In this document: one piece after another, positions 1 through 12,983 of the stretch
Layout of the letters: the number at the start of each line of letters is the position of its first letter
Position numbering within the stretch: position 1 is the first letter of the stretch
Source: Paracoccaceae bacterium
Lineage (GTDB): Bacteria; Pseudomonadota; Alphaproteobacteria; Rhodobacterales; Rhodobacteraceae
NCBI GenBank assembly: GCA_003545125.1
Contig: DQCI01000037.1
Span: 7,095 to 20,418, forward strand
DNA length: 13,324 nucleotides
Direction of reading: 5' to 3'
Position numbers and translations under genes: made by a program
The notes under the pieces: model-generated
What the model was told of the DNA's origin: nothing
Seen by the model: only the letters and a program-made list of their open reading frames with translations
Database searches by the model: none

Positions 1-3000
1 CAGCGCCGCTGTCGGCGGCGACGGCGGCGGGCGGCGCACTCCCGGCCACGGGCGGCGGTGCGGGTTGCGGTGCAGGCTGTGACGCGCCCAGCGCCGCAGG
101 AGGTGACGGCGGGCTCGCCCCCCCGGCCCCAAGCTTGGCGCGCACCGCCTCGGCGAGGTCGCCCAGCACCGGGTGGCGGAAGATGTCGGTGATCGACAGT
201 CTGGCCACTCCGAGCCGCGCCTTGATCTCGCGATGCGCCTGCACCGCGAGCAGCGAATGCCCGCCCAGGTCAAAGAAATTGTCGCGGGGTGAGATATTGG
301 CGACCCCGAGCGTGGCGGTCCAGATGCGCGCGACCTCTGCTTCGACGTCGCCGTCGAACCCCGCGCCTTCGGGGGCGGCCTTACTGGCGTCGGGCCTATT
401 CTCCGCCGGCCGGGACCGGGCCGCCACCCCGGGCGCCGATGGCATCGGCAGAGCCTTTCGGTCGACCTTCCGGTTCGGTGTCAGCGGGAAAGCGTCGAGC
501 GCCACGAAACGCCCGGGGATCATGTGCGCAGGCAGCGCCTCGGCCAGCGCGGCCTTGAGCGCCGCTTCGTCGAGCGCGCTGTCGGCCAGGACATAGGCCA
601 CAAGCATCTGCATCCCCGGCGCATCTTCGCGCACGACCACGACCGATTGGCGCACCTGGCCCAGCGCGTCGATGGCGGTTTCGATCTCGCTTGGCTCAAT
701 CCGGTATCCGCGCAGCTTGACCTGGAAGTCGGTCCGGCCGAGGTATTCGAGCGTGCCTCCGGGCAGCCAGCGGGCCAGATCGCCGGTGCCGTAGAGACGC
801 GCGCCGTCACGGTCGCTGAAGGGATCGGCCACGAAGCGCTCGGCGGTGAGATCTTCGCGGCGCCAGTAGCCACGGGTGACCCCCTCGCCGCCGATCCAGA
901 GCTCGCCCGGCACCCCGATCGGCCGGGGCTGCATCTTCTCGTCGAGGATATAGACCTGGGTGTTGGCAACCGGTGTGCCGATACCGACCACGCCCGCACA
1001 CCCCGCAGCGGGACCTGTGGTGGACCAGATCGTCGTCTCGGTGGGCCCGTACATGTTCTCTATATGCGCCTCTGTCAGCCCGGCCAGATCGGTCACCAAC
1101 GCCCCGGGCAGCGCCTCGCCGCCAAGGCAGATGTGTTTGACATCGGCGAGCGCGGCGCCGGCCTCGTCGTTCATCACCAGCATACGCGCCATCGAGGGCG
1201 TACATTGCAGATGGGTCACACCGTGGCGGCGGATCTGCGCGGCGATCGAGAAATCACCCGCCGCGGGCCCGGTCCCGACGCCGGCATCGGCACTGGCATT
1301 GGCAGCCCGTACCACTTGGGCCAACGGGTTGAGCCCGTCGAGCAGTGTGTCGACCTCGATGCCGTAGTCGATCAGGCAGGCGATCTCGGTCACCCCGATC
1401 GCCTTGACCTGCGTTGCCCGCTCCAGCGCGTCCTCGACGGTGCCGAATAGCCCACTGTCGTTGAAATAGCGTTCGAAGGCGAAATCGAGAATGCTCTCCA
1501 ATTCGTCCTCGGACAGCATTCCGAGATCGAGCTGGAAGGCATTGTCGACCCCTTGAGGCTTTTTGAACGCCGGGAAGGCCCAGGCGTATTGCTTGATAAG
1601 CCCCGCGGCCGAGCGCAGGTAGTCCTTCATCGGTTCGCGGGCGATCTCGCGCGCCTCCTCCCGGGTCGCGGCCAGGAAGGTGTGCAGCATCAAGGTGACC
1701 TTGAACCGCGACGGGTCATGGCCAGCCTCACCAAGCGCGTCGTGGTAGAGTTTGATCTTGCCCGCCACCTCGTCGATCGACTGGCCGAGCAGGTGGGTGA
1801 GCACATTGCAGCCGTTGCGGCCCGCCTCCTTCCAGGTTTCCGGATTGCCCGCCGTCGTGACCCAGAGCTCGAGCGTGTCGGAGATCGGGCGCGGCTGGGT
1901 GACGACCTCGTGCAGCTCTCCGTCCTGGCGCGGGAAGGCCACCGGTTCGCCCGCCCAGAGCCTTCGCAACTCGGCGATCTGGGCAAACATGGCAGGTTTG
2001 TTCGCGGGCGGTGTGTTTTCGGGGCGCAGCACGAAATCGTCGGGCTGCCAGCCGCTTGCAATGGCAAGACCCGCGCGGCCGCCGGTGAGGTTGTCGATCA
2101 CCGCCCATTCCTCGGCGATCCGGGCGGTATGATGCAAGGGAGCGACGCAGGAGCCCGCGCGCACGCCGATATTGCGGGTGAAGCCCGCGACAGCCGCACC
2201 GGTGACGCTGGGGTTCGGGTATGGCCCGCCGAAGGCGTGGAAGTGCCGTTCCGGCGTCCAGACCGCGGTGAAGCCGTTCTCGTCGGCGAACTTCGCACCT
2301 TCGAGCAGCGAGCGGTACTTGCCGCGCCCGCGCCCGTCGTCGTTACCCCAGTAGTAGAGGCTGAAGTCCATGCCGCCGGGGCCGGTGTCGCCCGGCGCGT
2401 CGCCTGCCGCCTCGCCTGCCACCAGCGCGCGGTTCCCGTCGCCCGAGATCACCAGTTTGAAGCCGCGCGCGAGCGTCCAGAACAGCTCCAGCACCGAGAT
2501 ATCGAAGGACAGCGAGGTGACCGCAAGCCAGACCCCGCCCGCCGAATGGTCAATCCGCGCGTCCATGCCAATGAAGAAATTCGCCACATTGCGGTGTTCG
2601 ACCATCACCCCTTTGGGACGCCCGGTGGAGCCCGACGTATAGATCATATAAGCGAGGTCTGTGCCCGAGACCCCAACGTCGGGGTTGGTGTCGGACTGAT
2701 CGCCGAGGTTTTCCGCGATGTCGAGGATCTGCGCGCCGCTTTGCGGCAGCGCGGCGGCCAGTGCAGCGGTGGTAATGACCACGCCGGCCTCGCTGTCTTC
2801 GAGGTAAAGCGCTGTGCGCTCTGCGGGGTAGCCCGGATCCATAGGCAGGTAGGCCCCGCCCGCCTTCATGATTGCGAGCGCGGCGATCACCAGGTCGGCT
2901 GAGCGCGGCAAGTGCAGTCCGACGATCACGCCCGGTTTCACGCCCACCCCGGTCAGCCGGTGCGCCAGCCGGTTGGCCGCAGCGTTGAGTGCGGCGTAGC

Positions 3001-4702
3001 TGAGGCTCTCGCCCTCGAAGGCCAGCGCCTCGGCGGCTGGCGTGCGGTGGACCTGGTGCTCGAAGGCCTGGTGCACGCATTCGGTGTCATCGTAGGCCAC
3101 GTCGGTCGCGTTCCAGTCGACGAGCAGGGTCTGGCGTTCGGCGTCGGGCAGGAGCGGCAGCGCGGCCGGGTCGTCGGTCTCGTCGAGGTGGGCGAGCAGA
3201 TGGGTGAGCCGCGCGGCGTAGAGATCGAGCGTGTGTTCGTCGATCCGCGCCCCGTCGCCGTAGAGCGTGGTGCCGGCGGCGGTCACCGCGAGGGTGAGCG
3301 CCGAGGGGCCGACAAGCCCCGCCGCGGCGTCATCCGACAGCCCTGATTGCGGCAGCGCCGGGTCGGCGCCCGCCAGGCGGGCCACCAGATCGGCGGCGAA
3401 GGGGCCGCGGGTGCGCGCGGTGTCAAGCGCGTCTCTGAACGTGTCCACCAGTCCGGCAAACGTGTCCGACAAAGACAGCTTCACCGGCACCCAGTCGCAT
3501 AGATGCAGGGCCGCCGGGCCCGGCGCGGGCGTTGCGTGGAGCGCGAGATCGATGGCATCTGCGCCGCCCAGCCGCGCCATCATCAGCGCAAAGCCTGCGC
3601 GGACCTCGTCGGGAGTGACCGCGCCGGGCACCGCGATCGGACGCGCGAGCGCGCGCGCGGGGCCCGCTGCGCGCGCGACCAGCGGCGGATCGGCGGGCGT
3701 GATGGCCTCGAGCGCCTTTCGCCAGACCGGATCTGAGCGCGTGAGCGGGGCCAGCGCAGTGTCGATTGCGGCGCGTTGCGCCGCGGACGGGCTCTGCAAG
3801 ACCGCGCCGACGCGGGCGACGTCGGTGGCGCGCGCGCGGGTGCCCTCAGGGCCGGTGATCCGGGTGAGCACGAGGTCTCCGTCCCCGGTAGCGAGGACGA
3901 ATTGGTCGGCATCGGCCGCCAGCACAGCCCCCGGCGCGGCGCCCGAGCGGCTTTGCGATACATGGGCCGCGCGCGCCAGCCAGAGCCGCCCGCCGGCCTC
4001 GAATTTCGGCAAGCACAGCGGGTTCCAGTAGTCGCCGTGGTCGAGCGCGCGGATCGCCCGCACGAGGTCGGCGGCGGGCGCCGCGAAATCCAGCACCGCA
4101 CCGGCTTGCGGCCGCGCGTCTCGGCCGAAATAGCTGCGCCGGGTCAGGTCCTGAGGCTGACGCGCGGGCGCGGGCTTGGCAAGCTCCACCATTAACGCCG
4201 GGAAACTGTCGATCGCGGCACCGTAGCATTTGGAATTGAGCGACAACGCGGTGTCTTCGCCGGTGATCTCGACCCCGGCAGAGGCGAGAATGTCGCCCTC
4301 ATCCACCCCGCCCTCGATCAGGTGCCAGGCAATGCCATGGCGGCGTTCTCCCGCGAGCGCGGCCCACACCGGCGCGTTCAACCCGGCATACGCAGGCAGC
4401 GGGCCGTCGTGGAAATTGACCGCCCCCCGGCGCGGCAGCGCCAGCACCGACGCGGGAAGGATATCGAGATTGGCGATCGAGAGCAGCCAGTCGAATGCCC
4501 GGTCCCCGAGTTGTTCAGCCAGCCGGTCGGCAAGCTGCGGCCCCGGCGCGACCACCTCGAGCCCGGCCCCCGCTGCCCAGGCGATCACGTCGGCGTCGCG
4601 GGTGACGACGGCGTTGATCTCGTGGCCGCCCCCGCGCAACAGCTCCCCACACTGGATCACGAGGCTTTCATGGCCGACGAGGACGGAACTGAAGTGGGAC
4701 AT
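1..4702 (-). CDS. NRPS, partial: formyltransferase - half condensation - adenylation interrupted by luciferase-like FMN monooxygenase - PCP
   Basis: Minus-strand frame from ATG at 4702, open for all 1567 codons to the left edge, so the C-terminus is missing. Domains in order: formyltransferase, about residues 1-290, with N96-F-H98 followed by D-G-P-L-P and a G-V-D134-E-G-D segment (likely N/H/D triad) plus the YFGR C-terminal motif near 191; residues about 305-530 resemble only the C-terminal half of a condensation domain and have no HHxxxDG; adenylation N-part 538-770 with YTSGSTGRPKG at 688 and FDISVLE at 733; inserted luciferase-like monooxygenase 777-1130 (VWTPERHF at 814); adenylation remainder 1148-1425 with YGPTE at 1218, YGTGD at 1304 and K1412; PCP 1448-1520 with LGGHS (S1483); then a Pro/Ala-rich linker. 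The FT/A/monooxygenase content matches the MupA/Atu3671-type NRPS family. Putative glycine activation, N-formylation and FMN-dependent oxidation are inferred. The start lies 2 nt after the glycosyltransferase stop, implying translational coupling. A further module, reductase or release domain may follow off-window. Confidence 0.95.
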   Translation of the reverse strand, partial: MSHFSSVLVGHESLVIQCGELLRGGGHEINAVVTRDADVIAWAAGAGLEVVAPGPQLADRLAEQLGDRAFDWLLSIANLDILPASVLALPRRGAVNFHDGPLPAYAGLNAPVWAALAGERRHGIAWHLIEGGVDEGDILASAGVEITGEDTALSLNSKCYGAAIDSFPALMVELAKPAPARQPQDLTRRSYFGRDARPQAGAVLDFAAPAADLVRAIRALDHGDYWNPLCLPKFEAGGRLWLARAAHVSQSRSGAAPGAVLAADADQFVLATGDGDLVLTRITGPEGTRARATDVARVGAVLQSPSAAQRAAIDTALAPLTRSDPVWRKALEAITPADPPLVARAAGPARALARPIAVPGAVTPDEVRAGFALMMARLGGADAIDLALHATPAPGPAALHLCDWVPVKLSLSDTFAGLVDTFRDALDTARTRGPFAADLVARLAGADPALPQSGLSDDAAAGLVGPSALTLAVTAAGTTLYGDGARIDEHTLDLYAARLTHLLAHLDETDDPAALPLLPDAERQTLLVDWNATDVAYDDTECVHQAFEHQVHRTPAAEALAFEGESLSYAALNAAANRLAHRLTGVGVKPGVIVGLHLPRSADLVIAALAIMKAGGAYLPMDPGYPAERTALYLEDSEAGVVITTAALAAALPQSGAQILDIAENLGDQSDTNPDVGVSGTDLAYMIYTSGSTGRPKGVMVEHRNVANFFIGMDARIDHSAGGVWLAVTSLSFDISVLELFWTLARGFKLVISGDGNRALVAGEAAGDAPGDTGPGGMDFSLYYWGNDDGRGRGKYRSLLEGAKFADENGFTAVWTPERHFHAFGGPYPNPSVTGAAVAGFTRNIGVRAGSCVAPLHHTARIAEEWAVIDNLTGGRAGLAIASGWQPDDFVLRPENTPPANKPAMFAQIAELRRLWAGEPVAFPRQDGELHEVVTQPRPISDTLELWVTTAGNPETWKEAGRNGCNVLTHLLGQSIDEVAGKIKLYHDALGEAGHDPSRFKVTLMLHTFLAATREEAREIAREPMKDYLRSAAGLIKQYAWAFPAFKKPQGVDNAFQLDLGMLSEDELESILDFAFERYFNDSGLFGTVEDALERATQVKAIGVTEIACLIDYGIEVDTLLDGLNPLAQVVRAANASADAGVGTGPAAGDFSIAAQIRRHGVTHLQCTPSMARMLVMNDEAGAALADVKHICLGGEALPGALVTDLAGLTEAHIENMYGPTETTIWSTTGPAAGCAGVVGIGTPVANTQVYILDEKMQPRPIGVPGELWIGGEGVTRGYWRREDLTAERFVADPFSDRDGARLYGTGDLARWLPGGTLEYLGRTDFQVKLRGYRIEPSEIETAIDALGQVRQSVVVVREDAPGMQMLVAYVLADSALDEAALKAALAEALPAHMIPGRFVALDAFPLTPNRKVDRKALPMPSAPGVAARSRPAENRPDASKAAPEGAGFDGDVEAEVARIWTATLGVANISPRDNFFDLGGHSLLAVQAHREIKARLGVARLSITDIFRHPVLGDLAEAVRAKLGAGGASPPSPPAALGASQPAPQPAPPPVAGSAPPAAVAADSGA

Positions 4703-4704
4703 GG

Positions 4705-5730
4705 TCAAGACAACCTCTGGGTCTGGGAATTGGGAACGGCGCCGGTCGCCGCCGGCGACGGGTTGCCGGGGCCTCCGTACAGCAGCGCCCGGGCATCATG
4801 GGCAAGAAGGGTGGTCAGAAATCCGGGTGCCACGCCCCGGTCGCGCCGGGTGAGCGTGCAGCGCAGCCAGTGGAGCCCGCCGCCTGCGAGGTGCGCAAGG
4901 CTCGCAAGGGCCGCATAGCCGATCCCGTGGTTTTTCGCGAAGTAATGCCAGCGGCTGTCAAACCAGTAGCCGGGCACGCGGCCCCAGGTTTTCATGCCGG
5001 TCGAAACAGAGCCGATATGCGCGACCCGGCTCGCGGGCACGTAGTCGGTCCGGTAGCCCGCCCGGGCGGCGCGCAGGCAGAGGTCGGTTTCCTCGAAATA
5101 GAGGAAAAAGGTCTCGTCGAAGAGCCCGATCTCGTCGAGCACCTTGCGGCGCATCAGCATCGAGGCCCCGGCCAGCCAGTCGACAGCTTGCGTCTCCATC
5201 GGCGTCTCCACCGGCACCTTGTGGTTCTTCAGAAGGCGTGACACCGGGCCGAATTTGATCGCGCCTTCGAATTCGCTGGCGACAGACGGGAAACGAAAGC
5301 TGGTCAGATGGGTGTCGCCCTCGGGTCCGTGGATGTGGCTGCCCGCGAACCCTGCCTCGGGCGTGGCTTCGAGGTGGTCGCGCAGCACGCGGATCGCGTC
5401 TCGGGCGGGAAAGGCGTCGGAATTCAGGATGTAGACGTAGTCCGGCGCAGACCCATCCGCCAGCCCGGCCCGGATACCGACGTTGTTGCCAGCCCCGAAC
5501 CCGCCGTTCACCCCCGACTGGATCACCCGCACTCGGCCCCCCTGCCCCCAGCCGGCCGCGGCGACATGGGCGCTCATCGCGTCGAAGGAGCCATCCTGGC
5601 TGTCGTTGTCGACGATGACGATGCCGCCGTCGATCCCCGCCATCGCGGTGCGTGCGGCCTCGGCCGCCTTCAATGTCATGTCGGCCGTCCTGTAGTTCAG
5701 GACGATGGTCAGAACCGTAGCGGTGCTCAT
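4705..5730 (-). CDS. family-2 glycosyltransferase, rhamnosyltransferase-like
   Basis: A 341-residue GT-A-fold glycosyltransferase that would transfer a sugar from an activated nucleotide donor; acceptor and sugar are not readable from sequence. Visible features: N-terminal nucleotide-binding strand TVLTIVLNYR, IVIVDNDSQDGS at about 37-48, NGGFGAGNN at 75-83, the DxD-like ILNSD (D105), DWLAGASMLMRR at 184-195, and FFLYFEETDLC (E213, E214, D216), the pattern typical of WbbL-like rhamnosyltransferases in GT2. No signal peptide is seen; the C-terminal about 70 residues contain short hydrophobic stretches, so peripheral membrane contact is possible. Its ATG overlaps the PKS stop as ATGA, and the NRPS starts 2 nt after its stop, so it is co-translated with both synthases. 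This favours a role in decorating their product over general cell-envelope synthesis, but that is inference. GT2 membership is firm; function is not. Confidence 0.93.
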   Translation of the reverse strand: MSTATVLTIVLNYRTADMTLKAAEAARTAMAGIDGGIVIVDNDSQDGSFDAMSAHVAAAGWGQGGRVRVIQSGVNGGFGAGNNVGIRAGLADGSAPDYVYILNSDAFPARDAIRVLRDHLEATPEAGFAGSHIHGPEGDTHLTSFRFPSVASEFEGAIKFGPVSRLLKNHKVPVETPMETQAVDWLAGASMLMRRKVLDEIGLFDETFFLYFEETDLCLRAARAGYRTDYVPASRVAHIGSVSTGMKTWGRVPGYWFDSRWHYFAKNHGIGYAALASLAHLAGGGLHWLRCTLTRRDRGVAPGFLTTLLAHDARALLYGGPGNPSPAATGAVPNSQTQRLS

Positions 5731-8700
5731 TCGGCCGCCACCTCGACGGGAGCGGAAACCGGCCGCGGCCGGTCTGCGGCCTCAGCCCGTTCCAACACCT
5801 GTTTCAGCCGCGCCGCCAGCACCCGTACATTGGGTTCAAGCACCATCGAATCGTGATCACCGGGGACTTCGTGAATGGTGAGCTGCGGCGCATGCCTGGT
5901 CCAGCCGTTGTCGCGGAACATGTAGTGTTTGTCTTTGCCGACGAGCCGGCCCGGGGCCACCTCCCAGCGCGCCATCAAGGGCGGGCGGAACAGCGTGAGC
6001 GGTCCCTGCCAGCGGCGGAGCCGGTATTTGCCGACGCTTTCGAGGAACGCCGCTTCGATCGCCGCATCGTGGAACTCGTGGGCCCCTTCGGCCTTGTCGT
6101 CCGCGCCCCCGCGGCGTTTGGCGCGTTCCCATTCGATCCGGTTGCGGGCCCAGGTCGAGACGTAGGACAGCCCCTCGTCCTTGAGGTTGAGCCAGTTGAT
6201 CGCGATCCGGTCGCGCCGGGTGAGCGGCGGGCGGATCGGCAGCGGGGTATCGAGCAGGATGAGCGAAGCGATCTGCTCGCCGGCCGCCTCAAGCTGGCGG
6301 GCGATCTCGAATGCTGTGATGCCACCGCCAGAGAACCCGCCCAGCATGTAGGGTCCAACGGACTGCACCTGGCGCATCTCGGCGATGTAGTCCCGGGCCG
6401 CCGCCTCGATGCTGTCATGCGGCGCCGCATCGCCGTAGAGCCCGCGCGCCTGCAGCCCGTAGAACGGGCGGTCGGCGCCGATGAGATGCGCGAGGTGGCG
6501 CAGGTTGAGCACGTTGCCAAACATGCCGGCCACGAGGAAGAAGGGCGTGCGCGGCCCACCCTCGCCGGTGTGCATCGGCACCAGATGGGTGAAGCGGCGT
6601 TCGGGTAACGCGAGGGCTTTGGGGCCAGATCGCGGCCCGCTCCGGTCACCGCTTCCTGCATCCGACACACCGCGCTCCGCCAACAGGGCCGCCACCTTGC
6701 GGATGGTCGGCGCCTCGAACAGGACCGAGATCGGGAAGTCGACGGTCCAGGTCTTGCGGATCTGAGCGAAGAGCCGCACGGCGATGAGCGAATGCCCGCC
6801 AAGGTCGAAGAAGCTGTCGTCCGCCCCGATCCGTTCGACCCCCAGAAGCTCGGCCCAGACCCCCGCCAGCGTGGTCTCGATCGCGCCTGTCGGCTCGACA
6901 TAGTCGCTGTCGAGCTGGGGCCGTTCGAAGCTCTGCACCTGGCCCGTTCGGACGGTTTCGGTCTCCACCGCCTGCGCGATCAGGGCGGGCAGGTCGAGCG
7001 CGGAGAGGATCACATGCGGGCGGTTCTCGAGCGCCAACGCGCTGAGGAACAGATCGGCCCCTTCTTCGGCGCGGATCCCCTGGCTGAGCGTGTGGCGCAG
7101 CCGTTCTTCAGCCGGTGACAGCGGTTGGATCCGTTCGACACCGCCGGTCCCGGCGGTCGCGGGGGCCACTTGCGGAGCAGCGGCAAAGCCCTGTGCGGTT
7201 TCCATCCGGCGGACCGAAAAGCCACGGATCTCCACACAGACCTCGCCCTGTGGCGTCGCGAGCGTGACGTCGAAGACCGCAATCTCGCCGCTGGCGTGGT
7301 TGTCAGCGGCATTGCGCATCCAACTGACGATGTTCGGCGGCAGGTCGCGGAACACCTTTACCGATCGGTAGGAGACCGGCACCCAAAGATTGGCCTCCGG
7401 GTCGTACCCCTCGATCAACACCATCGCCCAGCCGGTGGCGAGGTCCATGAGCCCGGGATGCAGCCGGTAGCCGGCGCCCGGATCGCCCAGCGCTGTCTCC
7501 GGCAGGGCCAGTTCGGCGAGCCCTTCGCCATAACCAAACGCGGTCGAGCGCAACACCCGCCAACGCGGACCGAAGGCGAGATGCGCCTCCTGCGCGCCGC
7601 TGAGCGCCCCCCCCTCCGGCGCCCGCACAGGCGTCGCGCAACGTGCGGCAATGGCGGCAATGTCGAGGGGGGCCGGCGCGCGCATCGGCAAGAGTGAGAT
7701 CTGCGCCTGGGCGTTCACGTCGCGCGCGGTCTCGGGCCCGCTTTCCACCACCAGGCCATAGCCTGTCTCGGTGCGCGGCAGGCGCAGCGCCACCGACCGA
7801 CCCTCGTCCTCGCCGACCGCGAGCGGGCGCAGGAAATCGAGATCGCGGATCTCGAAAGCCTGGGTTTCCCCCTGCCCCGCCAGCGCTTCCGCCGCCAGTT
7901 CCAGGTATCCGGTGCCGGGCAACAGCGCATCGCCCGCCCGAGTGCGGTGGTCATCGAGCACCCAACGGTCGGCGACCCGGTAGTCGGCGGTGAAGACACG
8001 GTGCCCGGCCCGGTCGAAGCTCTTGTGGTCGAGCAGCGGCTGGTGCGCGGGCGATACTGGCGCCAGGGGCCTTTCCCCGGTGCGCTGCGCCATGGCGTCG
8101 GCGGCCATGCCGGTATCGGCCCAGATCCCCCAGCCAATGGCCTGCACCCGGGTCTTGCCGCCCGCCCGCGCCCTGGCATAGGCGTTGAGGTATTCGTTCG
8201 CGGCAACATAGTCGACCTGGCCCGCCGGAGCGGTCGCGGTCGAGCTTGACGAGAACAGCACCATCCAGTCGATCTCGCCGTCGGGGAAGACCTCTTCGAG
8301 CACCTGGGTGCCGTGCAGCTTGGGTGTCAGGACATCCTCGATCCTGGTCATGGTCCGGGTCTGGATCAACCCGTCCTCGAGCACGCCAGCGGCATGGATG
8401 ATACCGTGCACCGGTCCCATCTCGGCCTCGATCCGGGCGCGCACCTCGCGCATGTCCTCGACGTTGGAGACATCGCCCGCGAGGCACAGCACCTCGCCGT
8501 GGGCGTCTTCCAACGCCTTGACCGCGCGGATCCGACGGGCAAGCGGATCGCCCGGGGCGGTATTGTCGAGCAGCTTGTCCCAGGTCTCGCGCGCGGGCAG
8601 ACCGTCGCGCGACATCAGCGCGATGCGCGCCCCTGCCGCCTCGATCAGACGGCGCGCAAGCGTGAGGCCGATGCCCCCGAAGCCGCCGGTGATGAGCACC

Positions 8701-11700
8701 ACGCCGTTGTCCTTGAGCTGCGACGCACCCACCTCGGGTGCCTCCAGAGGCTGCGGCCGCCAGGTCATCTCAAAGCGCTTCGTGCCGCGCACCGCCGCTT
8801 CCAAAGCCACCGCTGGCGAAAGCAGCTCCTCCAGCACCGGCGTGACATATCCCGAGAGGTCAGGCCGCACCCGGCCACGCGCCTGTGGCAGATCGAGATC
8901 GAGGGTAGAAACCGTGATGTTCGGGAACTCGCGGCCAATCACCCGGGCCGGGCCCGCCAGCGTGGCCTTTTCGGGATAGGCCAAGGCCTCGTGCGCGACC
9001 TGCACCGCGCCCGAACTCAGCACATTGATGTGCATGGGATGGCCCCAGCCTTCGTCGCCCATCGCCTGGGCCAGGAACACGAGGCTGAACAAGCCCTGTT
9101 CGAGGTTGCGGTGGAAAAAGCTCGACCCGGGACGGCAGTTTTCGCGCGTGGTGGCGAGCCATCCATGCAGGATCCGGTCGGGCAGGAACGCGCGCGTCCT
9201 CAGGTCGCCGATCAGCGCATCGTAGCTGTCGCGCCCGCGTTCGGGCGACAGGATGTATCCCGTCTTGCCGTCGCGGGCGAAACTGTCGCCCGTACGCACG
9301 GTCAAGACCTCGTGCCCGGCGGCGCGCAGCCGGCCCGTCACCTGGTCGCCGAGCCCCGCCGCGTCAGCGAACACAAGCCAGCGCTGGCGCGGCAGATCCG
9401 AGAGATCACTTGTCACGTCGTTGGCGCAGTCGGCGTAGACCGGGCGCCAGACCGGGCGCCAGCCCCAGTTTTCGGGGATTTCCTCGCGCATCAGCCACCC
9501 GGCTTCGGGCGCGGCCCGGGCCTCGCCCGGTTCGATGAAATACTGCGTGCGCCGGAAGGCGTAGCTCGGTAGCGGCACGCGAACACGGCGCGCCTCGCCC
9601 CAGACCTGCTCCCAGGCGATCTCACCGCCGAGCGCCCAGACCCGCCCCAGCATGGCCATGAAGTAGGCGTCGTCGGCGGTGTCGTCGGTCGGGTGGCGGA
9701 GCGAACCGATCACCTGGTTCGGATCGACCTGCGCGTGCTGGCCCGCGAGCGACGAGAGCGCCTTGCCCGGCCCCACTTCGATGAAGATGCGGTTCTTGTC
9801 CGCGAGCGTGCCGATGCACCCCTCGAAATCCACGGTGCCCCGCAGGTGCGCGACCCAGTAGTCGGGGCTGGTCGCTTCGGCGTCCGTGATCATCTGGCCG
9901 GACCGGTTCGACGTGAAGGGGATCCGCGGCGGATTGAGCTTGATCGAGCGGAGGTAACGCCCGAATTCCTCGAGGATCGGCTCCAGCATGCGCGAATGCG
10001 CGGCGATGTCGATGCCGATACGCTGGCAATCGACCTCGCGCGCCTCCAGCTCTTTCTGCAGCGCATCGAGCGCAGCCTGCGGCCCGGTGGCGACCGAAAG
10101 GTTGGGCGCATTGACCGCGCCGAGGTCGAGGTCATCGCCGAGCAGCGGGCGCAGCGCCTTCGCCGACAACGCGACCGAGAGCATACCGCCCGCGGGCACG
10201 GTGTCGAAGAGCTTGCCGCGCAGATGCACCAGCCCGATGCAGTCCTCGAACGACATCACGCCGGCGAGACAGGCGGCGGTGTTTTCGCCCATCGAATGGC
10301 CGACCAGCGCGGAGGGCGTCACCCCCCAGCTCATCCACAGCTTCGCAAGCGCGACTTCGCAGATCATGATCAGCGGCAGTTGCACCGAGGGCTGTTTCAA
10401 CCGCTCATCGGCCTTTGCCTCTTCGCCCGGCTCCGGCAACCACAGGGCGCGGATGTCGTAGTCGAGCCTGGGCGCGAGGATCTCGAGCCCTTTGTCCATC
10501 CAGCGGGCGAACTCGGGCTCGGTCTCATAGAGATCACGCGCCATCCCTGCGTATTGCGCACCGCCGCCGGGGAACATGAACACCGCATCCGGTTGGTCGA
10601 GCGCGGTATGGGTGAAAACCCGGCGGGGATCGTTCTCGGCAAGTTTCGCGGCGGCCTCTGTGTGGGTCTCTGCCACCACGACACGGCGGCGTTCGAACGC
10701 ATGGCGACCTTCTTTCAGGGTCCAGGCGATATCCGCCAGGTCCTGGTCGGGGTGCGTGGTGAGATGATCGGCCAGCCGCGCCGCGGTGTCGTCGAGTGCT
10801 GCTTTCGACCGGGCCGACAGGCACAGTATCTGGAACGGCCAGTCGGAGGATTCCGACGCCGCCCGTTCGGGCGCTTCCTCAAGCACCGCATGGGCATTGG
10901 TGCCGCCGACGCCCAACGAATTCACCCCCGCCCGACGCGGGCCCTTGTGGCTGACCCAGTCTGAAAGCGTGTCGTTCACCCGGAACGGCGAATGCTCGAA
11001 ATCCACGTCCGGGTTGGGCGCTTCGAAGTTCAGGCTCGGTGGGATCTGCCGGTGATGGAGCGACAGCGCGGTCTTGATCAGGCTCGCGACCCCGGCCGCG
11101 GTGTCGAGATGGCCGATATTGGTCTTGACCGAGCCCAGCTTGCAAAACCCCACCTCGTCGGTGGATTCCTGAAACGCCTGGGTCAGCGCCGCGACCTCGA
11201 TCGGATCGCCCAGATAGGTGCCTGTTCCATGGCATTCGACATAGTCGATCGTGTCGGCGGTCACCCCCGACATCAGCTGCGCCTCGGCGATCGCCTCGGC
11301 CTGACCGTCGACCGACGGCGCGAGATAGCCCGCCTTGGCGGCCCCGTCGTTGTTGATCGCAGAGCCCTTCAGCACCGCCCAGATGTGGTCGCCGTCACGG
11401 ATCGCGTCGTCCAGCCGGCGCAGCACCACGGCCCCCGCACCCGAGCCGAAGACCGTGCCTTGCGCCCGATGGTCGAAGGCGTGGCAATGGCCGTCGGGCG
11501 ACAGGATCTCGCCCTCCTTGTGGAGATAGCCGCGGTTTTGCGGCAGTTCGATCGTGACGCCGCCGGCGATGGCCATGTCGCAGTCGCCCGCAAGCAGCGC
11601 CTGCATCGCGTAGTGCGCTGCCACCAGCGAAGTGGAACAGGCAGTCTGCACGTTAACGCTGGGCCCGGTCATGTCGAAGACATGGCTCACGCGGGTGGCC

Positions 11701-12200
11701 AGAAAATCCTTGTCGTTGCCTGTGTGGCGCAGCAGGAACATGCCGACATCGTCGACGAGCTCCGGGTTCGAACAGATGTTGAAGTAGAAGTAGCTGCCCA
11801 TGCCACAGCCCGCGTAAACCCCGATGGGCCCCGGGCTCTTCGACGGCGGATGGCCCGCGTTTTCCAATGCCTCCCAGGCCACTTCCAGGAACTGGCGGTG
11901 CTGCGGATCCATGATCGCGGCTTCCTTGGGCGAGAGCCCGAAAAAGTCGGCGTCAAACTCGGCGAACCCATCCAGCGGCGCCGCGGCCGGCACATAATCG
12001 GGCCGGTCCACGAGATGCGGCGCCGCGCCGGCGGCGATCAATTCGTCGCGGCTGTAGCGGCGGATTGATTCAACACCCCGCGCCAGGTTGTCCCAGTAGG
12101 CCGCAATGCCGTCCGCTCCGGGCAAGTGGGCCGCCATGCCCACGATCGCAATGTCTGCGGCCGTTTCCCGGGCCGCCGCTGGCGCGAATGTATCGCTCAT
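5727..12200 (-). CDS. type I polyketide synthase, KS-AT-KR-DH-ACP-TE
   Basis: One-module PKS of 2157 residues, numbered from ATG at 12200. A TTG three bases upstream is in frame, but the AGGA at 12208-12211 is better spaced for the ATG. KS about 15-440 with TACSTS (C188), H324 and H364. AT about 538-850 with GHSMGE (S636) and AAHS (H735) in place of the usual HAFH or YASH, so the extender unit is uncertain (malonyl by default). A KR structural part from about 938 and catalytic KR 1163-1365 with TGGFGGIG, K1294, S1318, Y1331, N1335; LED at 1274-1276 keeps the Asp of B-type KRs. DH about 1385-1668 with H1418 and D1586. ACP 1772-1845 with LGGHS (S1804). TE about 1880-2135 with GFSGG (S1957), D1984, H2116. 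All active-site residues except some DH positions look intact. There is no loading domain, so it should accept a carrier-bound chain, elongate and reduce it once, and release it. It is the first gene of the operon. Confidence 0.97.
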   Translation of the reverse strand: MSDTFAPAAARETAADIAIVGMAAHLPGADGIAAYWDNLARGVESIRRYSRDELIAAGAAPHLVDRPDYVPAAAPLDGFAEFDADFFGLSPKEAAIMDPQHRQFLEVAWEALENAGHPPSKSPGPIGVYAGCGMGSYFYFNICSNPELVDDVGMFLLRHTGNDKDFLATRVSHVFDMTGPSVNVQTACSTSLVAAHYAMQALLAGDCDMAIAGGVTIELPQNRGYLHKEGEILSPDGHCHAFDHRAQGTVFGSGAGAVVLRRLDDAIRDGDHIWAVLKGSAINNDGAAKAGYLAPSVDGQAEAIAEAQLMSGVTADTIDYVECHGTGTYLGDPIEVAALTQAFQESTDEVGFCKLGSVKTNIGHLDTAAGVASLIKTALSLHHRQIPPSLNFEAPNPDVDFEHSPFRVNDTLSDWVSHKGPRRAGVNSLGVGGTNAHAVLEEAPERAASESSDWPFQILCLSARSKAALDDTAARLADHLTTHPDQDLADIAWTLKEGRHAFERRRVVVAETHTEAAAKLAENDPRRVFTHTALDQPDAVFMFPGGGAQYAGMARDLYETEPEFARWMDKGLEILAPRLDYDIRALWLPEPGEEAKADERLKQPSVQLPLIMICEVALAKLWMSWGVTPSALVGHSMGENTAACLAGVMSFEDCIGLVHLRGKLFDTVPAGGMLSVALSAKALRPLLGDDLDLGAVNAPNLSVATGPQAALDALQKELEAREVDCQRIGIDIAAHSRMLEPILEEFGRYLRSIKLNPPRIPFTSNRSGQMITDAEATSPDYWVAHLRGTVDFEGCIGTLADKNRIFIEVGPGKALSSLAGQHAQVDPNQVIGSLRHPTDDTADDAYFMAMLGRVWALGGEIAWEQVWGEARRVRVPLPSYAFRRTQYFIEPGEARAAPEAGWLMREEIPENWGWRPVWRPVYADCANDVTSDLSDLPRQRWLVFADAAGLGDQVTGRLRAAGHEVLTVRTGDSFARDGKTGYILSPERGRDSYDALIGDLRTRAFLPDRILHGWLATTRENCRPGSSFFHRNLEQGLFSLVFLAQAMGDEGWGHPMHINVLSSGAVQVAHEALAYPEKATLAGPARVIGREFPNITVSTLDLDLPQARGRVRPDLSGYVTPVLEELLSPAVALEAAVRGTKRFEMTWRPQPLEAPEVGASQLKDNGVVLITGGFGGIGLTLARRLIEAAGARIALMSRDGLPARETWDKLLDNTAPGDPLARRIRAVKALEDAHGEVLCLAGDVSNVEDMREVRARIEAEMGPVHGIIHAAGVLEDGLIQTRTMTRIEDVLTPKLHGTQVLEEVFPDGEIDWMVLFSSSSTATAPAGQVDYVAANEYLNAYARARAGGKTRVQAIGWGIWADTGMAADAMAQRTGERPLAPVSPAHQPLLDHKSFDRAGHRVFTADYRVADRWVLDDHRTRAGDALLPGTGYLELAAEALAGQGETQAFEIRDLDFLRPLAVGEDEGRSVALRLPRTETGYGLVVESGPETARDVNAQAQISLLPMRAPAPLDIAAIAARCATPVRAPEGGALSGAQEAHLAFGPRWRVLRSTAFGYGEGLAELALPETALGDPGAGYRLHPGLMDLATGWAMVLIEGYDPEANLWVPVSYRSVKVFRDLPPNIVSWMRNAADNHASGEIAVFDVTLATPQGEVCVEIRGFSVRRMETAQGFAAAPQVAPATAGTGGVERIQPLSPAEERLRHTLSQGIRAEEGADLFLSALALENRPHVILSALDLPALIAQAVETETVRTGQVQSFERPQLDSDYVEPTGAIETTLAGVWAELLGVERIGADDSFFDLGGHSLIAVRLFAQIRKTWTVDFPISVLFEAPTIRKVAALLAERGVSDAGSGDRSGPRSGPKALALPERRFTHLVPMHTGEGGPRTPFFLVAGMFGNVLNLRHLAHLIGADRPFYGLQARGLYGDAAPHDSIEAAARDYIAEMRQVQSVGPYMLGGFSGGGITAFEIARQLEAAGEQIASLILLDTPLPIRPPLTRRDRIAINWLNLKDEGLSYVSTWARNRIEWERAKRRGGADDKAEGAHEFHDAAIEAAFLESVGKYRLRRWQGPLTLFRPPLMARWEVAPGRLVGKDKHYMFRDNGWTRHAPQLTIHEVPGDHDSMVLEPNVRVLAARLKQVLERAEAADRPRPVSAPVEVAAE

Positions 12201-12207
12201 CAATTCG

Positions 12208-12211
12208 TCCT
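12208..12211 (-). promoter_or_regulatory. Shine-Dalgarno of the PKS gene, decides the start
   Basis: AGGA on the minus strand lies 7 nt before ATG at 12200 but only 4 nt before the in-frame TTG at 12203. This supports ATG as the start and makes the protein 2157 rather than 2158 residues. Confidence 0.6.
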
Positions 12212-12282
12212 GCTCTTTCGAGACCTTGAAAACCGGAGCCAGACCACGGATTGCTCATGCCTGGTCGTGGCCACAAACCAAC

Positions 12283-12292
12283 AGACCGGTCT
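12283..12292. repeat. 10-bp perfect palindrome upstream of the PKS gene
   Basis: AGACCGGTCT reads the same on both strands and lies 83-92 bp upstream of the PKS ATG, a position suitable for an operator. No known regulator is matched, and a 10-bp palindrome may occur by chance. Confidence 0.3.
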
Positions 12293-12399
12293 CTGGCCCC
12301 TGTACTCAATGTCCACGCCGGTTTGGCGAGATTGCGGCACCGCTTTGAAAAAAACAGACAAGTTGGGAGGTTACACATCCCGCTCGGGACCGGAACGCC

Positions 12400-12426
12400 C
12401 GGCCACGCGGGTCTGATCCGTGGCCG
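12400..12426. repeat. 8-bp inverted repeat, CGGCCACG-N11-CGTGGCCG
   Basis: Perfect arms at 12400-12407 and 12419-12426 separated by 11 nt. A further copy of CGTGGCC lies at 12266-12272 inside the palindrome GTGGCCAC. There is no T-run after either arm, so an operator for a dimeric regulator or a leader hairpin is more likely than a terminator. Function is inferred only from symmetry and position. Confidence 0.4.
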
Positions 12427-12523
12427 CCAGATTGGCATTGGCGCCGCGCCGTCGCGGCATGATCTCGCGCCACAATGCGCTGCTGTCGAGCTGCCGAAAG
12501 GGTCGTTGCACGTCGATTGCGGT

Positions 12524-12538
12524 TGATTACGGGGATCA
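12524..12538. promoter_or_regulatory. candidate iron-responsive operator, IRO-box-like site 1
   Basis: Exact TGA-N9-TCA, the core described for RirA-controlled iron-responsive operators in Rhizobiales and Rhodobacterales. It sits within a longer perfect inverted repeat TTGAT-N7-ATCAA (12523-12539). It lies 53-67 bp upstream of the DUF2218 start, where it could overlap a promoter. The core is only six fixed bases, so a chance match cannot be excluded for one site alone. Confidence 0.4.
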
Positions 12539-12560
12539 AATCGGCGAATTCGGCTTTAGA

Positions 12561-12575
12561 TGACCAAAATCATCA
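12561..12575. promoter_or_regulatory. candidate iron-responsive operator, IRO-box-like site 2
   Basis: A second exact TGA-N9-TCA, 37 bp downstream of the first. It overlaps a separate inverted repeat, GATGA-N6-TCATC (12559-12574). It ends 4 nt before the Shine-Dalgarno of the DUF2218 gene, so a bound repressor would sit over the start region of that transcript. Confidence 0.4.
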
Positions 12576-12579
12576 GATT

Positions 12580-12584
12580 AAGGA
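12580..12584 (+). promoter_or_regulatory. Shine-Dalgarno of the DUF2218 gene
   Basis: AAGGA followed by six bases and ATG at 12591. This fixes the start of the small gene and argues that it is really translated. Confidence 0.65.
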
Positions 12585-12590
12585 TTTCGC

Positions 12591-12983
12591 ATGCATGTCA
12601 CCACCGGCACTTTCGCCACGGCGCAGGGGGCAAGATACCTCCAGCAACTATGCAAGCATTTCGCGCACAAGATCGAGACCAGCTGTTCCGAGACCGAAGG
12701 CCGCCTGCACTACGACATGGGCACGGCGTTTCTGACGGCCGATGAGAACGGGCTCACCGTGCGGTTCGAACTGAAGAACGACGACGCGTTTGAAGCGGCG
12801 CAGCACGTGATCGACAGCCATCTCGAACGCTTCGCTTTCCGCGAGAATTTCAAGCACATGGACTGGGACTGGACCCCGCCGCCCGCGCGCAGGTCGGTCC
12901 CCCGGGCGGCGGCCGATATGCTGCGAGAACACATGCCCGGCCTGCATGCCTTCTTGCGTGAATCGGCCAATCGGCTCAGGTAA
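12591..12983 (+). CDS. DUF2218 family protein
   Basis: A 130-residue soluble protein with no signal peptide or membrane segment. The first about 92 residues carry the DUF2218 pattern: an ARYLQQLCKHFAHKI segment at about 14-28 with conserved Cys/His (C21, H23, H26), a central beta-rich part with HYDMGTAFL, and SHLERFAFRE at 75-84. The family's molecular role is unknown. As I recall, DUF2218 occurs near siderophore-uptake genes and as an N-terminal part of some siderophore-interacting ferric reductases, which fits an iron-linked locus. After HMDWDW there is a C-terminal extension of about 35 residues, rich in Pro/Arg then helical, beyond the usual roughly 90-100 residue domain. It is transcribed away from the PKS operon, with a good AAGGA site and stop TAA at 12981. 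Confidence 0.85.
   Translation: MHVTTGTFATAQGARYLQQLCKHFAHKIETSCSETEGRLHYDMGTAFLTADENGLTVRFELKNDDAFEAAQHVIDSHLERFAFRENFKHMDWDWTPPPARRSVPRAAADMLREHMPGLHAFLRESANRLR

What the first reader, a model, noticed from the sequence alone, without database searches (positions are those of the whole stretch)
1..12983. Compact NRPS-glycosyltransferase-PKS operon with iron-box-like control, possibly a new siderophore or glycosylated peptide-polyketide pathway
Seen: three coupled minus-strand genes (PKS, then ATGA overlap, GT2 glycosyltransferase, then 2-nt gap, NRPS with FT and monooxygenase domains) diverging from a DUF2218 gene preceded by two TGA-N9-TCA sites. Known: Atu3671-type NRPSs with embedded luciferase-like monooxygenases occur in the Agrobacterium siderophore locus, and RirA uses TGA-N9-TCA. 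Inference: an iron-regulated product that starts from an oxidised, formylated amino acid, is extended once by the PKS and may be glycosylated. I know of no described pathway with exactly this set of genes.
Basis: partly seen in the sequence, partly recalled or inferred. Interest (0 to 1): 0.75.

Follow-up and report, generated by a model that had tools for sequence, protein, structure and literature searches.

The report
Polysaccharide-linked peptide-polyketide assembly line
Three neighbouring genes form a small assembly line, widespread in marine relatives of this bacterium, that probably builds an unusual chemical group for the slime (surface polysaccharide) around the cell rather than an iron scavenger as first guessed.

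Summary
In detail: a PKS (KS-AT-KR-DH-ACP-TE), a GT2 glycosyltransferase and an NRPS (FT-A-PCP with a MupA/Atu3671-type monooxygenase inside the A domain) form one minus-strand operon. The iron reading fails: DUF2218 is near 0 of 120 related loci, TGA-N9-TCA is not enriched upstream of the PKS, and no TonB receptor was found in this 89% complete genome. The trio is common: TIGR04020 passes its cut-off in 105 of 295 genomes of the family, and 34 of 38 sampled loci not cut by a contig end have the trio in order. It often lies in exopolysaccharide loci: Wzx, Wzz or a ParA/CpsD-like gene in 27 of 40 loci, 0 of 20 controls. A paralogous trio in the same genome does too. The A domain reads as glycine. 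Best explanation: formyl-glycine is oxidised, extended by the PKS and released as a substituent of a surface polysaccharide; chemistry and acceptor are inferred. In print I saw the NRPS-PKS pair only as an orphan cluster; the polysaccharide link appears new.

The parts
5727..12203 (-). type I PKS, KS-AT-psiKR-KR-DH-ACP-TE (likely start ATG at 12200)
   Evidence: catalytic motifs of KS, AT, KR, DH, ACP and TE seen in the window protein
11022..12155 (-). KS domain
   Evidence: PF00109/PF02801
9660..10583 (-). AT domain
   Evidence: PF00698; GHSMG motif
8115..8705 (-). KR domain
   Evidence: PF08659
7194..8039 (-). DH domain, placed after the KR
   Evidence: PF21089 and PF14765
6681..6872 (-). 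ACP
   Evidence: PF00550
6237..6521 (-). thioesterase (Pfam-matched part)
   Evidence: PF00975; GFSGG and GDH motifs
4705..5730 (-). GT2 glycosyltransferase between PKS and NRPS
   Evidence: PF00535/PF13641; weak TIGR03965 and TIGR01556, below cut-off; conserved family
2..4708 (-). NRPS FT-(C-like remnant, by eye)-A[LLM]-PCP, runs off the window
3815..4522 (-). formyltransferase domain, N-H-D triad intact
   Evidence: PF00551/PF02911; triad kept in 69 of 70 aligned proteins
2432..3064 (-). A domain, first part (to motif A4)
   Evidence: PF00501
1313..2365 (-). luciferase-like monooxygenase inserted between A4 and A5
   Evidence: TIGR04020, 462 bits against cut-off 244.45
467..1249 (-). A domain, second part; code reads DILQCGMIWK (assigned by eye)
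143..337 (-). PCP
   Evidence: PF00550; GGHSLL
12591..12983 (+). DUF2218 gene, divergent; judged not part of the system
   Evidence: PF09981; near 0 of 120 related loci
12524..12538 (+). TGA-N9-TCA site, assigned to DUF2218
12561..12575 (+). TGA-N9-TCA site, assigned to DUF2218

Best explanation
The operon is one copy of a conserved Rhodobacteraceae unit, PKS-GT2-NRPS (often followed by its own phosphopantetheinyl transferase), that works as part of a surface polysaccharide pathway. Proposed steps: (1) the A domain loads glycine on the PCP; (2) the FT domain formylates its nitrogen, as in the linear gramicidin initiation module; (3) the embedded FMN monooxygenase hydroxylates the alpha carbon, leaving either an alpha-hydroxy-formylglycyl or, after collapse of the carbinolamide, a glyoxylyl thioester; (4) the PKS adds at least one malonyl unit, reduces and dehydrates it; (5) the TE releases the short acyl group onto an acceptor, most likely a sugar of the polysaccharide or of its precursor; (6) the GT2 adds a sugar to the same repeat unit; where present, the SGNH lipoprotein transfers or trims acyl groups outside the inner membrane. 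Shown: gene order, domains, intact motifs, wide conservation, polysaccharide context of most sampled relatives. Inferred: substrate, every chemical step, acceptor, product.
For: Trio in conserved order in 34 of 38 LLM-centred loci not cut by a contig end and, apart from six loci on short contigs, in the 80 GT2-centred loci, which were chosen for GT2 similarity. Any of Wzz, Wzx or the ParA/CpsD-like protein in the 20-kb stretch: 27 of 40 and 55 of 80, against 0 of 20 control stretches about 200 kb away; PPTase 32 of 40 and 68 of 80 against 0 of 20. Pfam tally of 89 flank ORFs: among the 25 families listed of 77 are epimerases, GT1/GT2, Wzx, MocA, Wzz, RmlD and no uptake receptor or siderophore family. 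The four annotated plasmid loci opened (of nine records that matched) lie among polysaccharide genes, one beside rfbABCD, a sugar transferase and galE. The own genome's second trio (GT2 53% identical; its PKS is cut by the contig end) stands near a Bac_transf, GT4 and GT2 gene and relatives of the Wzz and ParA/CpsD-like families, and the only PPTase relative found in the genome lies directly behind its NRPS. Two loci outside the family have NRPS then PKS-TE collinear, supporting the direction NRPS to PKS. Code: with PMC12283262; insertion between A4 and A5 as in myxothiazol and melithiazol, PMC10204066. The SGNH model matches PatB, OatA and carbohydrate esterases with modest scores.
Against: 13 of 40 and 25 of 80 loci show none of the three EPS markers; L114, L121 and L137 show none of the nine neighbour families sought. 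The window copy's own contig has only the SGNH gene of this kind. The GT2 is missing between PKS and NRPS in L120, L141, L146 and L221 and in the outside loci L215 and L217, so the NRPS-PKS chemistry does not need it; L217 shows none of the neighbour families and L215 only a weak GT4 match (27%). The FT histidine is replaced by Gln in the own paralogue, by Phe in L217 and lost in L211, so formylation is not universal. No chemistry, acceptor or expression was tested. The KR-then-DH order recalls iterative synthases (recalled), so a single extension is not secure.
Confidence: 0.57

Rival explanations
1. The trio makes a free, secreted glycosylated peptide-polyketide (signal or antibiotic); the polysaccharide genes are neighbours because these regions exchange as surface or plasmid-borne islands.
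For: Hybrid NRPS-PKS lines usually make soluble products (general knowledge); relatives outside the family have the NRPS-PKS pair without GT2 (L215, L217); some family loci lack EPS markers; some copies are on plasmids.
Against: The EPS context recurs across many named genera and in the paralogue of the same genome. No small-molecule exporter or resistance gene was recognised among the neighbour clusters that were annotated or the 25 listed families; several smaller clusters were not annotated, and a Wzx-like flippase could itself export a small molecule.
Confidence: 0.25
2. The trio makes a special lipid-like primer or anchor for a capsule, comparable to the role proposed for the RkpA synthase in the rhizobial K-antigen pathway (recalled).
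For: A PKS, GT2 and PPTase inside polysaccharide loci; the KR-DH order could allow iteration.
Against: No ER domain for a saturated chain; no Kps-type capsule family among the 25 listed; a glycine-type start with a monooxygenase is odd for a lipid.
Confidence: 0.1
3. An iron-regulated siderophore pathway.
Against: DUF2218 in 0 of 120 loci; motif at chance upstream of the PKS; no TonB receptor match in the own genome; no uptake receptor or siderophore family among those listed in the flank tally (the listed PF10609 has iron in its name but is the ParA/CpsD-like ATPase).
Confidence: 0.05

Closest known systems
Myxothiazol and melithiazol terminal NRPS modules (MtaG, MelG, names recalled): glycine A domain with monooxygenase between A4 and A5
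   Same: Same insertion site (PMC10204066 passages) and nearly the glycine code reported for monooxygenase-bearing domains (PMC12283262 passage)
   Different: There the module is terminal and cleaves the chain to an amide; here it starts with FT, has no sign of an upstream condensation partner, and a PKS with TE goes with it
Linear gramicidin synthetase LgrA initiation module (FT-A-PCP)
   Same: FT-A-PCP start; best-scoring solved relative by sequence
   Different: Glycine-like code, embedded monooxygenase, extra stretch between FT and A, PKS partner
MupA (mupirocin) alpha-hydroxylase
   Same: Same family TIGR04020; MupA alpha-hydroxylates an ACP-bound thioester (PMC10952193 passages)
   Different: Acts on a beta-keto polyketide; here the domain sits inside an NRPS A domain. 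Closest solved domain by sequence is PuwE, 6ket
Orphan NRPS-like/T1PKS cluster of Roseibaca domitiana and the PKS/NRPS genes of Phaeobacter inhibens T5
   Same: Roseibaca: NRPS 4527 nt and PKS 6333 nt with about 1 kb and one locus tag between, the size of the GT2 gene (PMC10584327 passages); Phaeobacter: PKS Inhi_1972 and NRPS Inhi_1974 (PMC4062626 passages)
   Different: In the passages read they are unknown clusters with no polysaccharide link or mechanism; that they are this trio was not tested by sequence
Fabrubactin siderophore cluster of Agrobacterium fabrum
   Same: Alphaproteobacterial assembly-line siderophore with a flavin monooxygenase, FbnE (PMC12971057 passages)
   Different: No receptor or uptake genes found with the trio; sequences not compared here

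Membership tests
TIGR04020 MupA/Atu3671 luciferase-like monooxygenases | score above curated cut-off over the whole profile | tested here: met
   462 bits against 244.45, profile 1-340 of 341
FT-type NRPS initiation modules (LgrA kind) | FT domain with N-H-D triad before A-PCP and no complete condensation domain | tested here: met
   Pfam order and no condensation hit; triad present in the window protein
FT-type NRPS initiation modules (LgrA kind) | formyl transfer to the PCP-bound amino acid | not testable with these tools
   needs an enzyme assay
A4-A5 monooxygenase-bearing glycine modules (myxothiazol kind) | insertion between A4 and A5 and a glycine code like DILQLGMIWK | tested here: met
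   insertion after FDISVLELF and before HLQCTP; code DILQCGMIWK, 9 of 10, positions by eye
A4-A5 monooxygenase-bearing glycine modules (myxothiazol kind) | terminal module that cleaves the chain to an amide and is followed by a TE | tested here: not met
   starts with FT, TE is on the PKS; the far end of the NRPS lies beyond the window behind an N-run, but 68 relatives are of similar length
Siderophore biosynthesis and uptake locus | TonB receptor or siderophore transporter with the pathway | tested here: not met
   0 PF00593 in the own genome, 89% complete; none among the 25 listed of 77 families in 89 flank ORFs of relatives
Siderophore biosynthesis and uptake locus | iron-responsive box at the biosynthetic promoter | tested here: not met
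   6 TGA-N9-TCA against 5.0 expected upstream of 71 PKS genes; other box types not tested
Exopolysaccharide (Wzx/Wzy-type) locus component | recurrent linkage with flippase, chain-length or CpsD-like genes beyond background | tested here: met
   27 of 40 and 55 of 80 against 0 of 20
Exopolysaccharide (Wzx/Wzy-type) locus component | such genes next to the window copy itself | tested here: inconclusive
   only the SGNH gene on a 20.4 kb contig that ends at the window's right edge
Exopolysaccharide (Wzx/Wzy-type) locus component | mutant changes the polysaccharide | not testable with these tools
   bench work
RkpA-type capsule synthases | sequence kinship with RkpA | not tested
   recalled only; papers seen in a search listing

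The most novel reading that the evidence does not exclude
About a third of the sampled genera of this family carry, and many of them use, a dedicated NRPS-PKS assembly line, started by oxidised formyl-glycine, to make a nitrogen-containing acyl group that is built into a surface polysaccharide: assembly-line chemistry as a regular part of exopolysaccharide synthesis.
Probability: 0.45. Interest if true: 0.75.

Novelty: new variant of a known kind. Interest (0 to 1): 0.55.

Why it matters
Roseobacters and their kin are abundant surface colonisers whose exopolysaccharides matter for attachment (general knowledge). If an NRPS-PKS line decorates these polymers, it would explain a frequent orphan hybrid cluster of the family, predict a new polymer substituent that can be looked for by NMR or mass spectrometry, and show megasynthases serving glycan synthesis instead of free natural products.

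Tried and rejected
Rejected: iron control of the operon. For DUF2218 alone the boxes look better than chance: 6 of 21 DUF2218 relatives have TGA-N9-TCA within 150 bases upstream, 0.5 sites expected. Rejected: a unique gene set. Uncertain: that the second trio on contig C8 lacks the monooxygenase, because a 36-base N-run sits exactly at the insertion site; two other trios without it (L211, L213) show that such versions exist, but L211 is decayed. Led nowhere: GT2 against solved structures by sequence (none); the stretch between FT and A against solved structures (none); papers holding 'Atu3671' (none in the library searched).

Literature: searches. Of twelve papers only passages returned by 'find' were seen: PMC4062626, PMC9765074, PMC12283262, PMC12971057, PMC10204066, PMC11342130, PMC9396620, PMC11340318, PMC8383342, PMC10584327, PMC11595833, PMC10952193. 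All others were seen as search listings.

Limits of the counts. The 40 LLM loci were picked by hand at roughly even steps from about the first 85 matches, so the lowest-scoring matches are not represented; many stretches hold only part of the KS because they were cut at 20 kb; several lie on the same contigs as GT2-set loci, so the two sets overlap. Neighbour queries were drawn from the GT2 set (at most 12 per family), which makes its counts partly circular; the 20 controls, one per genome on contigs that carry an LLM hit, supplied no queries. In one search the printed label of the wider neighbour count names PPTase, but the script did not include it. From 406 flank ORFs of at least 250 aa, 110 were drawn at random and 89 given to Pfam; I dropped 21 by hand to shorten the list, with no rule recorded.
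Full report
What is there. The window is bases 7095-20418 of a 20,418-base contig of a 4.35 Mb, 89% complete genome assembly. One minus-strand operon fills most of it: a PKS (5727-12203), a GT2 glycosyltransferase (4705-5730, overlapping the PKS by 4 nt) and an NRPS (from 4708 leftwards, running into an N-run). Pfam and NCBIfam give the PKS as KS-AT-KR-DH-ACP-TE and the NRPS as FT-A-PCP with a TIGR04020 monooxygenase inserted into the A domain. The stretch between FT and A resembles the second half of a condensation domain by eye, but no Pfam condensation model and no solved structure matched it. The DUF2218 gene (12591-12983) diverges; its TGA-N9-TCA pair lies just before its start.

Motifs. 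In an alignment of 70 NRPS proteins (window, the own paralogue and 68 relatives from the 80 GT2-set loci whose reading frames were long enough) the FT residues N-H-D are kept in 69; the paralogue has Gln for His. In a second, smaller alignment the His is Phe in L217, outside the family, and the site is lost in L211. The A-domain code, assigned by eye from recalled positions, is DILQCGMIWK in the window; position five varies (M, F, L, Y, C) and the other columns examined do not; the last Lys was looked at in 14 proteins only. A published survey reports that four glycine-activating domains with a monooxygenase share DILQLGMIWK (PMC12283262, passage), which is the code of the own paralogue. Myxothiazol and melithiazol synthetases carry the monooxygenase between A4 and A5, hydroxylate glycine at the alpha carbon and so cleave the chain, leaving a glyoxylyl thioester (PMC10204066, passages). 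The insertion here is at the same place. The window PKS has its KS, AT, KR, DH, ACP and TE motifs.

How common. The GT2 has 4183 relatives at E <= 0.001 among 7999 scored. Their titles name Rhodobacteraceae genera or unnamed Alphaproteobacteria, apart from one titled Enemella, which may be mislabelled. In these 80 the order PKS-GT2-NRPS is the same, with parts missing only in six loci on short contigs (L026, L056, L064, L087, L091, L092, whose printed rows for L052-L054 were cut: FT 80, LLM 77, KS 74, DH 78, TE 79 of 80). TIGR04020 passes its cut-off in 105 of 295 genomes drawn one per genus from the family. In 40 loci centred on such hits, two (L116, L118) are cut by contig ends; of the other 38, 34 have the full trio with the GT2 between; L120, L141 and L146 lack the GT2 there and L114 has another order. 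In the class, 10 of 385 genomes match the FT region at E <= 1e-30, five of them outside the family; two of these, L215 and L217, have NRPS then PKS-TE side by side without GT2. In 198 genomes searched with the paralogue's GT2, 68 match at E <= 1e-60, and apart from the paralogue itself the best is 56% identical, so the C8 type is rare in that sample.

Neighbourhood. Clustering the flank ORFs of the 80 loci gave, next to the trio, a phosphopantetheinyl transferase, a Wzz-like protein, a ParA/CpsD-like ATPase, a MocA-epimerase fusion, a flippase (Polysacc_synt), GT2 and GT4 enzymes and an SGNH-like lipoprotein. Against 20 control stretches about 200 kb away on contigs that carry LLM hits, any of Wzz, Wzx or the ATPase was found in 27 of 40 LLM loci, 55 of 80 GT2 loci and 0 of 20 controls; PPTase in 32, 68 and 0; any of the three or GT4, GT2b, MocA fusion or SGNH in 35, 72 and 3. 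A Pfam tally of 89 flank ORFs shows sugar-nucleotide epimerases, glycosyltransferases, flippases and chain-length proteins; 25 of 77 families were listed, and no uptake receptor or siderophore family is among them. Nine plasmid records hold the GT2 at E <= 1e-60; the four opened tell the same: in Ruegeria conchae the trio, PPTase and a hypothetical gene of SGNH size follow rfbABCD and a sugar transferase and precede glycosyltransferases and galE; Paracoccus sp. Arc7-R13 has flippase, sugar transferase, WecB/TagA and PPTase, Ruegeria sp. SCSIO 43209 sugar transferase, GT61, DegT and GtrA, Parasedimentitalea marina CpsD/CapB, sugar transferase, WecB/TagA and a Wzy-like gene under the gathering score.

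The own genome. A second trio lies on contig C8 (GT2 53% identical; NRPS 43-50%; PKS part 44%, cut by the contig end). Near it are a priming sugar transferase, GT4 and GT2 genes, a Wzz-like gene just under the gathering score and an ATPase whose CbiA match is also under it; tblastn with the neighbour families finds the last two at 32% and 45% identity. The only PPTase relative found in the genome lies directly behind its NRPS. The window copy is followed by an SGNH lipoprotein gene interrupted by an N-run, then a GntR regulator and, by eye, ABC transporter genes. Its near relatives L014 and L015 carry flippase and ATPase genes beyond the SGNH gene. A model of the SGNH family member L017 (mean pLDDT 88) matches PatB, GDSL-type lipases, carbohydrate esterases and OatA, with modest TM-scores of about 0.3-0.4 by query length.

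Iron. DUF2218 is in 0 of 40, 0 of 80 and, among the controls, 0 of 20 stretches. TGA-N9-TCA upstream of 71 PKS genes: 6 seen in 4 loci, 5.0 expected from base-composition shuffles. PF00593 TonB receptors: 0 in the own genome, while the same search finds them in 3 of 14 control genomes. Of 21 DUF2218 relatives, 6 have the box within 150 bases upstream, 0.5 sites expected. The boxes thus belong to DUF2218 if to anything.

Variants. L213 has lost the monooxygenase and DH and has a damaged KR motif, with FT and carrier motifs kept; L211 has lost KS, AT, PCP and FT catalytic residues, its PKS is in two frames, and it still sits in a full polysaccharide locus. These suggest that the oxidation and beta-processing steps can go together, but two cases prove nothing.

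Reading. The best account is a loading module for oxidised formyl-glycine feeding one PKS module, with release of a short nitrogen-containing acyl group used in a surface polysaccharide. Gene content, order and context are shown; chemistry and acceptor are inferred. In the literature searched a fitting NRPS/PKS pair appears as an orphan cluster: the hybrid NRPS-like/T1PKS class, the most frequent new type, was detected in 18 of 37 species studied with Roseibaca domitiana (not all need be this trio), and in that species the two genes lie about 1 kb apart with one locus tag between, which fits the GT2 (PMC10584327); Phaeobacter inhibens has Inhi_1972 and Inhi_1974 (PMC4062626). In the passages read I saw no link to polysaccharide; most subscription papers are not in that library.

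Added: the FT replacement in L217, the weak GT4 match in L215, sub-threshold Pfam scores, the hand-dropped ORFs and the overlap of samples.

Noticed in passing
window 12524-12983: DUF2218 gene with a TGA-N9-TCA pair; 6 of 21 relatives elsewhere have the box within 150 bases upstream (0.5 expected), and others show by eye a similar A-rich TGA...TCAG motif, so this small gene may itself be iron-regulated.
   Followed up: partly
L010:9029-15699: Second PKS-GT2-NRPS trio in the same genome; FT His replaced by Gln, and a 36-base N-run exactly where the monooxygenase would be inserted.
   Followed up: partly
L211:6189-16511: Decayed trio (KS Cys, AT Ser, PCP Ser and FT residues lost, PKS in two frames) kept in an otherwise normal polysaccharide locus.
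   Followed up: partly
L213:4197-13830: Trio without monooxygenase and DH and with a damaged KR motif: a natural simplified version.
   Followed up: partly
L221:1346-12453: Second monooxygenase-bearing NRPS-PKS pair of genome G126, with the PKS downstream, an SGNH match in between on the other strand and no GT2 match.
   Followed up: no
L008:6029-6947: SGNH-like lipoprotein gene directly downstream of the window's NRPS; its family was found in 22 of 80 and 18 of 40 loci, and the members scanned have no Pfam match.
   Followed up: yes
L114:2-20000: The best TIGR04020 hit of the family sample lies in a different, larger NRPS-PKS cluster with an 8 kb PKS frame.
   Followed up: no
L223:4165-5817: Exosortase XrtD (VPLPA-CTERM type) annotated beside the trio's polysaccharide locus in Ruegeria conchae.
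   Followed up: no
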